Assembly (NCBI GenBank): GCA_043817485.1 | Contig: JBDRGX010000137.1 | Span: forward strand, 1-10,200 | Length of the DNA stretch: 10,200 bases | Direction of reading: 5' to 3' | Origin: JBDRGX01 sp043817485 [NCBI: bacterium] | GTDB lineage: Bacteria; JBDRGX01 | Shown here: positions 1 to 10,172 of the stretch, piece after piece | How the letters are laid out: the number at the start of each line of letters is the position of its first letter | Position numbering within the stretch: the stretch's first letter is position 1 | Notes under the pieces: model-generated | Seen by the model: the letters and a program-made list of their open reading frames with translations, nothing else | What the model was told of the DNA's origin: nothing | The model's database searches: none | Position numbers and translations under genes: made by a program

Positions 1-1681
1 CCATTTTAGATCCAGTTTGAGCAGCATTTCCAATAAATCTTATTTTAGAAGAATCAATATTTGGAATAAGTCCTATTTTAAGAGCATTTTCTTTTCTAAT
101 ATAATTTCCAAAAGTACCAGCAATATATACTTGTTCAATATCTTCATTTTCTATTTCTAATATTTTTTTTAATACTTCTATGCCTGCTTTAATTGCTGCT
201 TTAGCTAATTGCAAATTTCTTATATCTTTTTGAGTAATTTTAATTTTTGAAGATAAATAAAAAGCATTATTATCTAATCTTTTTAATAAAAGTGGAGATA
301 AATTATTTTGTAATTCTTTTTTTGTTTTAAACTTACCTGTTGAATCTAAAATTCCTTTTTTAAGCATTTCTGCAACTAAATCAATTAACCCAGTTCCACA
401 AATTCCACAAGGTTCGATATTTCCAATTACATTAACAATTACATCATCTTCTAAAATAACCTTTTCTATAGCACCTTGTGTTGCACGCATTCCACAAGAA
501 ATTTCTCCACCTTCAAACGCTGGACCTGCTGCTGTTGAACAAGATAAAAGTCTATGTTTTGATCCTAAAACAATTTCTCCATTAGTGCCAATATCTATAC
601 ATAAAGAAATTTTATCTTTTTTATAAATTTCACTTACAAAAATAATGCCAATAATATCACTACCTACAAAACTAGAAATATTAGGTAAAGAATAAACATT
701 AGCCTTTTTATTTATTTTAAGTTTTAAACAAGAAGATTTTTCTTTAAAATTATTAGAAATAACTGAAACAAAAGGAAAAATTCCAAGTGATTTAGGAGAA
801 ATTTTGAAAAAAAGATGTTGCATACAAGGATTTCCAACTATACACATTTCATAAATATTTTCTTTTTTGATTTTAGTTTGTTTTGCAATTTTTATTATTA
901 TTTCATTTATAGTGTTAATAATTTCTTGATGTAATTGCATTAAACCATTTTTTTGATTTATACAAAAATTTATTCGAGAAATTACATTAGCCCCAAATTT
1001 AGTTTGTTTATTTAAAAAAACTTCGGTTAAAATTTCTTCACCAGTATTAAGATTCATTAAAGTTCCAACAACTGTTGTTGTTCCTATATCAAAAGCAAAA
1101 CCATAATTTTTATTTGTAGTATCATTCTGTTCTAAAGCAATTATTTTTTCATTATCAACAACAACTGTTATTTTGTAATCACTTTTTTGTAAAAAATCTG
1201 TAAGTTTTTGAAGAAGAAATAAATTTGGCTGAAATATTTTCCCAGTTTTATTTTTAAGACAAGTTTGTAAATTTTCAAATAATGAAATTTGTGTTTCAAT
1301 GTTTGGTTTTTCAAGATGAAAATAATATTTTTTAATAGTAGACTCAAAAGAAATTTTATTTTCTCTTTGCAAAGATAATATTTTTTCTTTATATAATTTT
1401 ACTTCTTTTTCTACAAAAATTACAGATTCTTGATATATTTTAGATTGACAAGCAAGCCGTATTCCTTGTTTTAATTTATCAGAAGAAAGATGTTTTTGTT
1501 CTAAAACAGTAGGTTCAAAAGCACCTTTAATAACCTTTACTACACATTTTCCACATGTTCCTTGATCACCACATAAATTAGTAAGGCTAATTCCAGCTAA
1601 TATAGCTGCTTCCATAATAGAAGTTCCTGATAAAACATAAACAATTTTTTTTTCTGGTTGAAAAATAACTTTTATTTCCAA
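1..1681 (-). CDS. RACo-like corrinoid-activation protein: N-terminal 2Fe-2S ferredoxin plus ASKHA ATPase (DUF4445), C-terminus cut by window edge
   Basis: About 560 codons are visible; the last ~50-80 residues lie off the left edge. Residues 1-95 form a plant-type 2Fe-2S domain with cluster ligands C37, C43, C46 (spacing CX5CX2C) and C78. A linker follows, then an ASKHA fold: phosphate-1 motif DIGTTT (198-203), DIGTNGE (363-369), GPAFEGGEI (386-394), GMRA (397-400), PCGICGTGLID (424-434) and AGTFGN (521-526). This order is that of RACo, which uses ATP and a low-potential electron to reactivate the Co(II) corrinoid protein of acetyl-CoA synthesis; relatives serve corrinoid methyltransferases. 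The partner here cannot be seen. The frame is open from the start to the edge with no shift. The start is TTG at 1681, one base after the ilvD stop, with AAGAAGG five bases upstream inside the last ilvD codons; no better start exists. It is probably translationally coupled to ilvD. The family is secure, the substrate is inferred. Confidence 0.9.
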   Translation of the reverse strand, partial: MEIKVIFQPEKKIVYVLSGTSIMEAAILAGISLTNLCGDQGTCGKCVVKVIKGAFEPTVLEQKHLSSDKLKQGIRLACQSKIYQESVIFVEKEVKLYKEKILSLQRENKISFESTIKKYYFHLEKPNIETQISLFENLQTCLKNKTGKIFQPNLFLLQKLTDFLQKSDYKITVVVDNEKIIALEQNDTTNKNYGFAFDIGTTTVVGTLMNLNTGEEILTEVFLNKQTKFGANVISRINFCINQKNGLMQLHQEIINTINEIIIKIAKQTKIKKENIYEMCIVGNPCMQHLFFKISPKSLGIFPFVSVISNNFKEKSSCLKLKINKKANVYSLPNISSFVGSDIIGIIFVSEIYKKDKISLCIDIGTNGEIVLGSKHRLLSCSTAAGPAFEGGEISCGMRATQGAIEKVILEDDVIVNVIGNIEPCGICGTGLIDLVAEMLKKGILDSTGKFKTKKELQNNLSPLLLKRLDNNAFYLSSKIKITQKDIRNLQLAKAAIKAGIEVLKKILEIENEDIEQVYIAGTFGNYIRKENALKIGLIPNIDSSKIRFIGNAAQTGSKM

Positions 1682-1682
1682 T

Positions 1683-3351
1683 TTAACCTTCTTGTTTTAA
1701 AATTGCTCCAGTATTTGCAGAACTTACTTGCATTGCATAACGATAAAGGTATCCAGATTTTATTTTATAATCAGGTTTAATCCATTTTTCAAATCTATCT
1801 TTTATTTCTTTATCAGTTAATTTTACATTTAATTTTTTGTTTGGAATATCAATTTCAATAATATCTCCATCTTTAAGAATAGCAATAGTTCCGCCTTCTT
1901 GAGCTTCGGGAGAAATATGTCCAATAGCAGCACCTCTGGTGCCACCAGAAAATCTCCCATCTGTAATTAAAGCAACATCTTTATCTAACCCAATCCCAGC
2001 AATTGCTGATGTTGGTCCAAGCATTTCTCTCATTCCAGGTCCACCTTTAGGTCCTTCATAACGAATAACAATAACATCACCTTTTTCTATTTTTTTTTTC
2101 AAGAATTGATTTTGTAGCATCTTCTTCAGAATTAAAAATTCGAGCTGGGCCTTTATGAACAAACATTTTTTCATCTACAGCTGATTGTTTAACTACAGCA
2201 CCATTAATAGCAAGATTTCCAAAAAGAATAGCAATTCCACCATTTTGTGAATAAGCGTTATCAATAGTTCTAATTACCTCTGTATCTAAATTTTTCGCAT
2301 TTTCTATATTTTTTTTAAGAGTATTGCCTGTAACTGTAATTACATCAGTATCAAGAAAATTTTTCTTTTCTAATTCTTTCATTACTGCACAAATTCCACC
2401 AGCTAAATCTAAATCTTCCATATGATGATGTCCAGCAGGAGAAATTTTACAAAGATTTGGAGTTTTTATACTTATTTCATTAAATAAATTCAAATCTAAT
2501 TTTATTTTAGCTTCATTAGCTATGGCTGGTAAATGTAAAACTGTGTTTGTTGAACTACCTAAAGCCATTTCTACATAAATAGTATTATAAAATGCTTTTT
2601 GTGTTGCAATATCTCGTGGCAAAATATTTTTTTCAACTAACTCCATTATTTTCATACCAGTTATTTTAGCTAATCGTTTTCTTTTAGCATGAACTGCTGG
2701 AATAGTTCCATTTCCAGGCAATGCTAATCCTAATGCTTCTGTTAAACAATTCATTGAATTGGCAGTGAACATTCCCGCACAAGACCCAACTCCAGGACAA
2801 CATTCATTTTCTAATTCTTTTAATTCTTCTTCATTAATTTTAGAACAAGCATATTTTCCAACACCTTCAAATACTGTAATTAAATCAACAATTTTATTTT
2901 TTATTTTCCCAGCCAACATTGGCCCACCACTTATAATAATTGAAGGGATATTTATTCGCAACATTGCCATTAACATTCCAGGAGTAATTTTATCACAATT
3001 AGGAATCAAAACTAATCCATCAAAAGGATATGCATTAGCCATTATTTCAATAGAATCTGCAATTATTTCTCTTGAAGCAAGAGAATATTTCATTCCTAAA
3101 TGTCCCATTGCAATTCCATCACAAACTCCAATTGTAGCAAATTCCATTGGAGTTCCTCCAGCAATTTGTATTCCTGTTTTTACAGCTTCAAGAATTTCAT
3201 TCAAATGCATATGACCTGGAATAAGTTTATTGGCAGAATGAGCAATTCCTATAATGGGCTTATTTAATTCTTCATCAATATATCCCATTGCTTTAAATAA
3301 AGAACGATGAGGTGCTTTTGTATAACCTTTTTTCATTAAATCAGAACGCAT
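1683..3351 (-). CDS. ilvD: Dihydroxy-acid dehydratase (IlvD), interrupted by a one-base frameshift in an A10 tract
   Basis: IlvD (EC 4.2.1.9) dehydrates 2,3-dihydroxy-isovalerate and -methylvalerate to the 2-keto acids of valine, leucine and isoleucine synthesis in the cytoplasm. Visible motifs are PGHMHL (45-50), [14 protein letters not shown] (116-129, cluster Cys119 and Lys121, the usual carbamylated lysine), [12 protein letters not shown] (184-195, Cys191) and, past the shift, [11 protein letters not shown] and [10 protein letters not shown] with the catalytic-type Ser. Gly46 stands where [2Fe-2S] homologues carry a third Cys (TPCN type), so this looks like the E. coli-like O2-sensitive class. 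The first 420 residues read from ATG 3351 (GGAGG six bases upstream). Without correction that frame stops at 2077, and the remainder is open in another frame to 1683. Removing one A from the A10 tract gives a 555-residue protein, normal for the family, with no other damage. It is followed by the RACo-like gene after one base. Confidence 0.93.
1687..1693 (-). promoter_or_regulatory. Ribosome binding site fixing the TTG start of the RACo-like gene
   Basis: AAGAAGG on the minus strand overlaps the last sense codons of ilvD and sits five bases before a TTG that opens the ferredoxin domain. No in-frame ATG or GTG offers a full-length alternative, so this site decides the start and implies coupling to ilvD termination. 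Confidence 0.7.
2090..2099 (-). other. A10 homopolymer at the ilvD frameshift point
   Basis: On the coding strand G is followed by ten A and then TAG. The upstream frame reads LEKKNRKR and stops, while the downstream frame reads [15 protein letters not shown]. With nine A the join is [12 protein letters not shown], matching the spacing I know for the family (AIL-x-x-K-I-x-x-GDV). Correction would need RNA polymerase to drop one A or add two, or a +1 ribosomal shift. A sequencing or assembly length error is equally possible. Confidence 0.85.
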
Positions 3352-7946: not shown

Positions 7947-10172
7947 ATGTATCAAGAAATATTTAATATTTTAAAAAAACAAATTTCTGGGGAAAAAATA
8001 AAAAATACTCTTTCAAAAATTTTCTCAAGTGATAAATATTTTTCTTTTGATAATTTTGAAAAAACAGCTTTAATTTGTGCAAATTTGATGAAAGAATATG
8101 GATTAAAAGAAGTAGAAATTATTCCTTTTAAAACAAATGAAAAATATGGTGATTGGATAATGCCTCCTTATTGGAAAGCAGAACAAGCAGAACTTAAAAT
8201 AATTTTTCCAATTGAATATAATTTAGCAGATTATCAAAAAAATCCACATTCTTTAATTATGTTTAGTTCTCCAACTCCTTCTGAAGGAATTAAAACAGAA
8301 GTAGTTTTATTTGAAGATTTAAAAAATTATTCTTTATTAAAAGGGAAAATTGCTTTTACTGATAAATCTCCACATGAAATAGAAAATGTAGTTTTAAATA
8401 ATGGAGGTATTGGAATTATTTCAGATAACATTCCAGAAAATAAAATTGAAAATAGAGAAAATTTTATTCCAGATGCAACTGTTTGGCGCAATGATTGTTT
8501 TGGATATTTTAAAAAACAAACAGGATTTGGCTTTTCTATATCTTTTGAAAAAGGAAAGCTTTTAAGAAATTTATTAAAACAAGAAGAAAAAGTTGTTGTT
8601 TATGCAAAAGTTAAAACAGAAATTACAGATGGAAAAATATATGCAGTAACAGGATTAATTTCAGGAGAAACAAAACAAGAAATTTTAGGAATTGCTCATT
8701 TATATGAACCTGGTGCAAATGATAACGCATCAGGAGTATCTGTTCTCATTGAAATAGCAAATCTTATAAAAAAATTAGGAAAACCAAAAAGAGGAATTAG
8801 ATTGTTTTTTTCTTTTGAACTTTTTGGAATAATGGCTTATCTCTCTCAAAAAAGAAATCATTCAATTATTGCTGGTATAAATTTAGATATGGTAGGAGAA
8901 GATCAAGAAAAAACTAAAAGTATTTTAAGAATGATTTCAACACCCGCACCAGTTCCTTATTTTACAAATTATTTATTAAAAAAATTATTATTTGATATTG
9001 CTAATTTGGATTCTTCTTTTAAATGGGCAGAAAAATCATTTGATGTTTTAGATAATATTATTTCAGATCCGATGATAGGAATTCCTACTCAATCTTTAAT
9101 TAATTGGCCAGATTTATATTATCATACTTCATTAGATACAATGGATAAAGTAAGTGAAAAAATGCTTTTTAATAGTGGGTTAATTGCTGGAACTTATTTA
9201 TCATTTTTGTCTAAATCTGGATTTAAAGAAGCTTATTGGTTTGTACAAAAAATATATGAGGAAAATAAAGAATTATTTTCCCTTCCATTAAATGAAAAAA
9301 ATTATTATTTAAAAAAAAATGTAAAAAAAATGCTTTTTTCTACATTGTTTTTAGTAAATGAAAATGAAAAATCTGAATTAGAACAATTTATTTTAAAAAC
9401 AATTAATGAAAAATCTGAAAATTTCATTTTTGCTTCTATGGAAAATAATCCACAATATAAATTAATTCCAAAAAGAAAAATATTTGGACCTTTATCAATG
9501 TTTGATTTATCAGAACAAGGAAAAGAAGATTTATCTAAAATTACAGATGAAACCTTTCCTTGGAATAAAATATTAAATTATATTTTATTTTGGACAGATG
9601 GAAAAAAAAGTATTGAAGATATTTTTAATCTTGTAAAACAAGAAAAAAAACTTGATATTTCTTCTATTTCTTCTATTGAGTATGTAAAAAATGAAAACCA
9701 ATATTTTTTAATAGATGATATTTCTCTTAATTCAAAAGGTTATACAAAATCTGTTATTTTTTTTTCACATAAAAAAATAGATAATTTGAGTAATACTTCT
9801 ATTGTTTTAAGTCCTTTTAGTGCAACTTCATCTATTGTTTTAAAAATATTATTAAATTATTTTAAAAATAAAAATATTGAATATACAAATAAAATAAATA
9901 AAAAAAATTCTCTTTTACTTATTGGAGATGATGCTTTAAAATATGAAAATAAAATTTATCCTTTTCAATATGATCTTGGAAATTTATGGTTTGAAATATT
10001 TAAAAAGCCAATTGTTTTTGCTCTTTGGGCAGTAAATAAAAAAAGTTTGTTAAATGAAAAAATTGATATTAGAAAATGTGCTGATACATTATTAGAATCT
10101 AAAAAAATTTTTAAAAATGAATTTAACCAAATTGCAAAGAAGCAAAAAAAAATTATTCGGAAATTTGTATAG
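7947..10172 (+). CDS. Chimeric protein: DUF4910-type M28 aminopeptidase fused in frame to a truncated MqnA (chorismate dehydratase) domain
   Basis: Residues 1-425 form an M28-like zinc peptidase of the DUF4910/DUF2172 type. A PA-like inserted region spans about 90-220. The metal-site motifs are AHLYEPGANDNASG (250-263, His251 and Asp259), FELFGIMAYL (290-299, Glu291), NLDMVGED (312-319, Asp314) and YYHTSLDTMDKV (391-402, His393). A helical linker leads to KRKIFGPLS (509-517) and the start of a winged helix, ILFWTDGKKSIEDIFNLVKQE (546-566), the usual C-terminal module of this family. At about 570 (base 9654) it becomes MqnA: SSISSIEY, KSVIFFSHKKI, LSPFSATSS, LLIGDDALK, YDLGNLWFE and PIVFALWAV. 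The first 60-80 MqnA residues and its N-terminal YLN-type motif are missing. The frame stops at 10170-10172, but the MqnA C-terminus continues in the -1 frame. No signal peptide is seen, so both parts look cytoplasmic. The peptidase may work; a functional dehydratase is doubtful. It is divergent from the glmU-like operon. Confidence 0.85.
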   Translation: MYQEIFNILKKQISGEKIKNTLSKIFSSDKYFSFDNFEKTALICANLMKEYGLKEVEIIPFKTNEKYGDWIMPPYWKAEQAELKIIFPIEYNLADYQKNPHSLIMFSSPTPSEGIKTEVVLFEDLKNYSLLKGKIAFTDKSPHEIENVVLNNGGIGIISDNIPENKIENRENFIPDATVWRNDCFGYFKKQTGFGFSISFEKGKLLRNLLKQEEKVVVYAKVKTEITDGKIYAVTGLISGETKQEILGIAHLYEPGANDNASGVSVLIEIANLIKKLGKPKRGIRLFFSFELFGIMAYLSQKRNHSIIAGINLDMVGEDQEKTKSILRMISTPAPVPYFTNYLLKKLLFDIANLDSSFKWAEKSFDVLDNIISDPMIGIPTQSLINWPDLYYHTSLDTMDKVSEKMLFNSGLIAGTYLSFLSKSGFKEAYWFVQKIYEENKELFSLPLNEKNYYLKKNVKKMLFSTLFLVNENEKSELEQFILKTINEKSENFIFASMENNPQYKLIPKRKIFGPLSMFDLSEQGKEDLSKITDETFPWNKILNYILFWTDGKKSIEDIFNLVKQEKKLDISSISSIEYVKNENQYFLIDDISLNSKGYTKSVIFFSHKKIDNLSNTSIVLSPFSATSSIVLKILLNYFKNKNIEYTNKINKKNSLLLIGDDALKYENKIYPFQYDLGNLWFEIFKKPIVFALWAVNKKSLLNEKIDIRKCADTLLESKKIFKNEFNQIAKKQKKIIRKFV

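What the first reader, a model, noticed from the sequence alone, without database searches (positions are those of the whole stretch)
9590..9720. In-frame fusion of an M28/DUF4910 aminopeptidase to the middle of MqnA
The peptidase's C-terminal winged helix is cut after NLVKQEKKLD, and the next residues, ISSISSIEY, match the internal DxxLxSSIEY motif of MqnA. Both parent genes plausibly encoded a KLDI-like stretch here, so a microhomology-mediated deletion of a few hundred bases (end of the peptidase, intergenic gap, MqnA N-terminus) would explain a seamless join. The base sequence at the join also contains ATTTCTTCT twice in tandem. I know of no described protein with this architecture. It may be a young deletion that disabled menaquinone synthesis, a real bifunctional or regulatory fusion, or an assembly join.
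Basis: partly seen in the sequence, partly recalled or inferred. Interest (0 to 1): 0.75.

Follow-up and report, generated by a model that had tools for sequence, protein, structure and literature searches.

The report
Accidental join of two broken genes
One reading frame runs from a nearly complete peptidase-like gene straight into the middle of a vitamin K2 (menaquinone) synthesis gene whose conserved front end is missing, which looks like a recent accidental deletion (or an assembly error) and not a new two-function protein.

Summary
One open frame (7947-10172, 741 aa) carries a DUF4910/M28 domain and then an MqnA domain that starts inside the MqnA profile. All 37 peptidase homologue rows that I aligned run at least 23 residues past the join. 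MqnA homologues have some 45-50 residues before it, with a G-x-x-x-YLN-x-x-P motif (Gly and Asn 22 of 23) that is absent here. Both partners are thus cut, one near its end and one near its start, as a deletion of a few hundred bases between neighbouring genes would leave. The MqnA half is broken again: its conserved tail lies in another frame after an A9 run, and TGLPFVFA reads FKKPIVFA. No match row covered both domains in 805 genomes, and no locus examined held both genes. Codon use is compatible on both sides, so a two-species chimera is unlikely; an assembly join within one genome is not excluded. Most likely it is a recent loss-of-function deletion fusion. A selected fusion is improbable. 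Interest is low. The lineage could not be placed, and no genome is held.

The parts
7947..10172 (+). fused open reading frame, 741 aa, ATG to TAG
7947..9641 (+). DUF4910/M28-type half, residues 1-565; conserved positions H251, D259, E291, D314, H393 (read as M28-like metal ligands, inferred) kept
   Evidence: Pfam; alignment of 37 homologue rows
9474..9641 (+). C-terminal winged-helix-like segment of the peptidase half (about residues 510-565; winged helix inferred from the related CA_C2195), cut before its end
   Evidence: homologues continue 23-43 aa in 33 of 37 rows, the other 4 run on into a further domain
9639..9659 (+). join zone (residues 565-571, EKKLDIS); contains an A8 run at 9643-9650
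   Evidence: last peptidase-like and first MqnA-like residues; homopolymer list
9642..10142 (+). MqnA (PF02621) part, residues 566-732, lacking some 45-50 N-terminal residues incl. the YLN motif
9657..9674 (+). tandem ATTTCTTCT; native MqnA coding sequence, not an insertion
   Evidence: spacing equal to homologues
10144..10152 (+). A9 run after which the conserved MqnA C-terminus continues in another frame to the window's end
   Evidence: three-frame translation; alignment

Best explanation
A recent in-frame deletion fused two neighbouring, same-strand genes: a DUF4910/M28 peptidase-like gene and mqnA (chorismate dehydratase, first enzyme of the futalosine route to menaquinone). The deletion removed about 25 codons and the stop of the first gene, any gap, and some 45-50 codons of mqnA. 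The product would keep the peptidase core, with MqnA residues in place of the last elements of the C-terminal segment, and would carry an inert MqnA remnant. Shown: the two truncations, the loss of conserved MqnA residues, the second frame break, and absence of the architecture in the genomes sampled. Inferred: that the genes were neighbours, that the event took place in the cell, and that MqnA activity is lost.
For: Geometry: the breakpoints lie some 23-43 residues from the end of the first gene as homologues have it and some 45-50 from the start of the second, on the same strand, as a short deletion between neighbours predicts; a random join would seldom do so (my reasoning, not computed). 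The lost N-terminus holds conserved positions (Gly 22, Tyr 19, Leu 21, Asn 22, Pro 22 and a further Pro 23 of 23) and is not found elsewhere in the window. The remnant keeps 29 of 55 conserved columns against 33-52 in homologues, TGLPFVFA reads FKKPIVFA, its GC1/GC2 (0.28/0.22) is the lowest of the correctly phased genes, GC2 only just, and a frame break follows. Under neutral AT-biased change a stop would appear after a median of 6 substitutions, within 27 in 95% of 2000 runs, so the open frame points to a recent event. Synonymous codon use of the MqnA part fits the other window genes (z 0.5).
Against: No sampled relative shows the two genes adjacent: no MqnA match in 18 peptidase loci, no peptidase match in 26 MqnA-type loci, and, by eye, different contigs or 2.8 Mb apart in genomes listing both. 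The lineage itself was not reached: best peptidase identity about 40%, best IlvD 60%. Two homopolymer frame breaks in 10.2 kb may mean an error-prone assembly. The lower conservation of the MqnA part could simply reflect a divergent lineage, and the conserved columns were defined on the homologues, which favours them.
Confidence: 0.55

Rival explanations
1. Assembly artefact: the contig wrongly joins two loci of one AT-rich genome, or drops a stretch between two neighbouring genes, through a short shared low-complexity sequence.
For: The join zone is low-complexity (A8 run, TATTTCTTCTATT twice) in a window of 24% GC. Two frame breaks at homopolymers in 10.2 kb suggest sequence error. No locus examined has the genes adjacent and no match row covers both domains. 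An assembly join would leave both parents intact until recently, as the open frames imply.
Against: A random misjoin would rarely fall in about the last twentieth of one gene and the first fifth of another, same strand and in frame (reasoning). Codon use is compatible across the join. Within the window the only exact repeat of 13 bases or more touching 9601-9700 is the local tandem; imperfect ones exist (18 nt at 83%, 31 nt at 71%).
Confidence: 0.33
2. A selected fusion protein: the MqnA half was recruited as a C-terminal ligand-binding or structural cap of the peptidase-like enzyme, or the protein has two functions.
For: The frame is open through the join, and some MqnA alignments run 18-28 residues back across it (nine genomes). 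Relatives of this peptidase family do carry another enzyme domain at the C end: 4 of 37 homologue rows have an Antibiotic_NAT domain.
Against: In those four the C-terminal segment is complete in the alignment and the added domain nearly whole; here both are cut. The conserved MqnA motif is missing, the tail is out of frame, and no match row in 805 genomes covers both domains. One in three random joins is in frame.
Confidence: 0.08
3. Contig chimera of two different organisms.
For: Only that such joins occur in metagenomes (general knowledge); that the window is a metagenome record is itself not told.
Against: Both sides have the same extreme composition (GC3 0.08 and 0.06) and compatible codon use.
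Confidence: 0.04

Closest known systems
MqnA, chorismate dehydratase (SCO4506; PDB 7ahr, 2nxo)
   Same: Aligns to residues 54-228 of 291, 4.2e-11; PF02621 well over its cut-off
   Different: Lacks the first 53 residues by that alignment and what follows about 228; conserved N-terminal motif absent; TGL of TGLPFVFA replaced; no NCBIfam match
DUF4910/M28 peptidases with a C-terminal winged helix (e.g. L001 of an Armatimonadota MAG; CA_C2195, PMC4000134; PDB 3k9t matched at 1e-5 is, from recollection, CA_C2195)
   Same: 35% identity to L001 in the alignment; same conserved His/Asp/Glu positions
   Different: The last 23-43 residues that homologues have are missing and MqnA sequence follows
M28-Antibiotic_NAT fusions in Armatimonadota genomes (L027, L028, L032, L036)
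   Same: Same peptidase family with another enzyme domain at the C end
   Different: There the peptidase end is complete and the added domain nearly whole; here both are truncated at the join

Membership tests
MqnA (chorismate dehydratase) | PF02621 match | tested here: met
   3.5e-32, 112.3 bits against cut-off 26
MqnA (chorismate dehydratase) | closer to solved MqnA than to MqnD, which shares PF02621 | tested here: met
   7 of 9 PDB sequences matched are named chorismate dehydratase, 2 'Hypothetical protein' (2nxo, 2i6e), none MqnD; no MqnD control was run
MqnA (chorismate dehydratase) | N-terminal segment with G-x-x-x-YLN-x-x-P | tested here: not met
   absent; Gly and Asn in 22 of 23 homologues; not elsewhere in the window
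MqnA (chorismate dehydratase) | complete C-terminal part in frame | tested here: not met
   frame ends at 10172; conserved tail in another frame
MqnA (chorismate dehydratase) | NCBIfam curated model reached | tested here: not met
   0 families for the whole protein and for the MqnA half
MqnA (chorismate dehydratase) | dehydratase activity on chorismate | not testable with these tools
   needs protein
DUF4910/M28 peptidase | Pfam PF16254 and PF04389 over cut-off | tested here: met
   55.0 and 52.1 bits against 26.6 and 21.3
DUF4910/M28 peptidase | conserved His, Asp, Glu, Asp, His positions | tested here: met
   H251 36/37, D259 37/37, E291 36/37, D314 37/37, H393 36/37 rows, all kept in the window
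DUF4910/M28 peptidase | canonical M28 catalytic Asp (HxD) and first Glu of EE | tested here: not met
   Y253 and F290; homologues mostly C (28/37) and P (28/37), so peptidase activity is unproven; the motif assignment is mine
DUF4910/M28 peptidase | complete C-terminal winged-helix segment | tested here: not met
   37 of 37 rows continue at least 23 residues past residue 565

The most novel reading that the evidence does not exclude
A fixed, expressed fusion in an unsampled AT-rich lineage, in which a remnant of MqnA's binding-protein fold serves as the C-terminal cap or ligand sensor of a DUF4910 enzyme, replacing the end of its winged helix.
Probability: 0.06. Interest if true: 0.5.

Novelty: new member of a known kind. 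Interest (0 to 1): 0.2.

Why it matters
It shows how an in-frame join can pass for a new domain architecture: both parents are cut where conserved elements begin or end. If the deletion is real, this lineage lost this mqnA and so perhaps the futalosine route, unless a second copy exists. Automatic annotation would otherwise record a spurious 'peptidase-MqnA' family. It would matter far more if the same fusion turned up in a second genome.

Tried and rejected
Own genome: none held, so a second mqnA, mqnB/C/D/E and the rest of the tail could not be sought. Lineage: IlvD matched 17 of 28 genomes given; the best rows (54-60%) are Chloroflexi, Thermotogae and Armatimonadota alike, with other Armatimonadota at 39-49%, so no phylum is assigned; the three-genome class of the best Armatimonadota hits did not help. 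Viral contigs: no relative of either half. Rfam: no match.

Structure: the AlphaFold model is mostly confident to about residue 490 (less so near 161-190 and 361-400), but the MqnA half has pLDDT mostly under 50.

A frameshift alone as cause of the fusion was rejected. The tandem 9-mer as an insertion was rejected. Alignments that overrun the join exist on both sides: MqnA rows from query 537-547 in nine genomes, from 552 (G945) and 559 (G077); peptidase rows to 578-587. I take these as chance extensions but did not run Pfam on each; a few of these frames are long (G747 638 aa, G223 858 aa).

Rows dropped or left out: of 29 MqnA-type loci held I gave 26 (L023, L024 and L025, partial or weak PF02621 matches, left out); L019 and L020 gave no match to the window segment at E 1 and fell out; L080 duplicates L067. 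The 37 peptidase rows are my choice from the peptidase loci held (10 of the 18 and 27 from the genome search). In one search the ilvD_C row was read out of phase and is disregarded.

Paper searches: fusion and families; homopolymers. One search (mqna, gene fusion, peptidase) found no paper; in PMC3914697 'fusion', 'fused' and 'bifunctional' do not occur (passages only).

Full report
Observation. The window carries one open frame at 7947-10172 (+), 741 aa. Pfam finds DUF4910 and M28 within residues 57-411 and PF02621 (VitK2_biosynth) in 565-732, the latter from profile position 39 of 252. Residues 566-741 alone match PDB chorismate dehydratase SCO4506 from its residue 54 on (4.2e-11); none of the nine PDB sequences matched is named an MqnD, though I ran no MqnD control.

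Both partners are cut. I aligned 37 peptidase homologue rows (36 distinct genes, since L010 and L059 are the same one), chosen from the loci held. Every row goes on past window residue 565, by 23 to 43 residues in the 33 rows without an additional domain. By comparison with CA_C2195 I read the missing piece as the end of a C-terminal winged helix. On the other side, 24 of 26 loci given to the search (23 distinct proteins) have a match to the window's MqnA segment and were aligned. The front end missing in the window carries a conserved motif: Gly 22, Tyr 19, Leu 21, Asn 22, Pro 22 and a further Pro 23 of 23; the one row without the Asn, L075, is cut short there. The Asn lies 32-45 residues before the Asp at which the window's MqnA sequence begins. 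That an Asn in this segment is catalytic is my recollection; no paper on the MqnA structure was among those listed (20 of 1,337 and 12 of 50).

Nothing is hidden in another frame. The other two frames at 9600-9760 have stops. Of 22 homologue MqnA N-termini none matched the window under E 0.05, and the best of 36 peptidase tails matched 14 residues at E 0.004 inside maf, which I take as chance. As a rough control, a homologue N-terminus found the locus of another homologue, anywhere in it and at E up to 1, for 23 of 23 loci.

The MqnA half is broken at the other end as well. Its frame stops at 10172, but a conserved continuation (CIDFKEYYNCL, fitting the Y-L region of homologues) is in another frame after an A9 run at 10144-10152. 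In the same window ilvD is split at a T10 run, 2090-2099, with both parts matching Pfam. Homopolymer frame breaks therefore occur twice in 10.2 kb, either as sequencing error or as real slippage-prone sites. Other runs of eight or nine within the fused frame (such as A9 at 9311-9319 and T9 at 9757-9765) do not break it.

Age and constraint. The remnant keeps 29 of 55 columns that are conserved in at least 60% of homologues, against 33-52 among the homologues themselves; the columns were defined on those homologues, which favours them. TGLPFVFA reads FKKPIVFA. First and second codon position GC is 0.28 and 0.22, the lowest of the correctly phased genes, though GC2 only just (glmU 0.23) and on 170 codons; the ilvD_C row of that table was out of phase and is disregarded. 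Yet the 170-codon frame holds no stop, while neutral AT-biased change would create one after a median of 6 substitutions and within 27 in 95% of runs. I infer that the sequence evolved under selection until recently, and that the join is young or artificial.

One genome or two. Synonymous codon choice in the MqnA part fits usage from the other window genes (z 0.5); the peptidase part is more typical than expected (z 2.6) and glmU less (z -2.5), so the test is rough. The join is probably not between two organisms.

Elsewhere. The full protein was searched in 101 genomes of the Armatimonadota locus's phylum, 100 of the Acetothermia locus's, 103 of the Thermotogae loci's, 4 of the Zixibacteria locus's, 251 of the Chloroflexi locus's, 47 of the Eisenbacteria loci's and 199 of the Acidobacteria loci's: 805 genomes, at E cut-offs of 1e-3, 1e-6 and 1e-5 (the rest). 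Phylum names are read from the record titles of the starting loci. In some searches only part of the candidates was scored in some genomes (such as 5 of 7), and genomes without a match are partly unlisted, so weak MqnA matches can have been missed. re-searched 3 of the Armatimonadota. No match row covers both domains, though some overrun the join by up to 28 residues on one side. Where a genome lists both halves, I see them by eye on different contigs or, in G093, 2.8 Mb apart. No MqnA match lies in the 18 peptidase loci, with up to 10 kb on each side, and no peptidase match in the 26 MqnA-type loci, with about 1.5-4 kb on each side where the contig allows. Different contigs in fragmented assemblies are weak evidence against adjacency, and the window's own lineage was not among those reached.

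Mechanism. A short deletion between neighbouring genes leaves exactly this: the first gene cut just before its end, the second cut just after its start, same strand, and in frame one time in three. A random misjoin would seldom do so, but a local assembly collapse could look the same. I put a real deletion at 0.55, an assembly join within one genome at 0.33, a selected fusion at 0.08 and a two-species chimera at 0.04. ATTTCTTCT in tandem is native MqnA sequence.

What the product would do. The DUF4910 core keeps the conserved positions H251, D259, E291, D314 and H393, but by my reading lacks the M28 HxD Asp (Y253; Asp in only 2 of 37 rows) and the first Glu (F290; Pro in 28 of 37). The authors of CA_C2195 (PMC4000134, passages seen) report Ser and Pro at these two places in their DUF4910 protein and favour a role other than classical peptidase. 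'Aminopeptidase' should therefore be read as a family name. MqnA activity is very unlikely (inference from the missing conserved segment).

Verdict. As a finding it is ordinary: a fused pseudogene-like remnant or an assembly join.

Noticed in passing
window 2090-2099 (-): ilvD is split into two overlapping frames at a T10 run; both parts match dihydroxy-acid dehydratase domains. Either a homopolymer sequencing error or a slippage-prone site in an AT-rich genome.
   Followed up: partly
L027, L028, L032, L036 (genomes of the Armatimonadota locus's phylum): M28-type peptidases of this family with a nearly complete C-terminal Antibiotic_NAT (AAC(3)-like) domain: 4 of 37 homologue rows, each checked with Pfam; DUF4910 is over its cut-off only in L027 and L028. 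A recurrent natural fusion that may be worth its own look.
   Followed up: partly
window 2-1681 (-): RACo-type ASKHA protein (Fer2, linker, middle and C-terminal domains), a corrinoid-protein activator family; it runs off the low end of the window and hints at Wood-Ljungdahl or methyl-transfer metabolism (inference).
   Followed up: no
residues 253 and 290 of the fused ORF (window 8703-8705 and 8814-8816): This DUF4910 family lacks the canonical M28 catalytic Asp and first Glu in most of 37 rows (C in 28 and P in 28), so its chemistry is open.
   Followed up: partly
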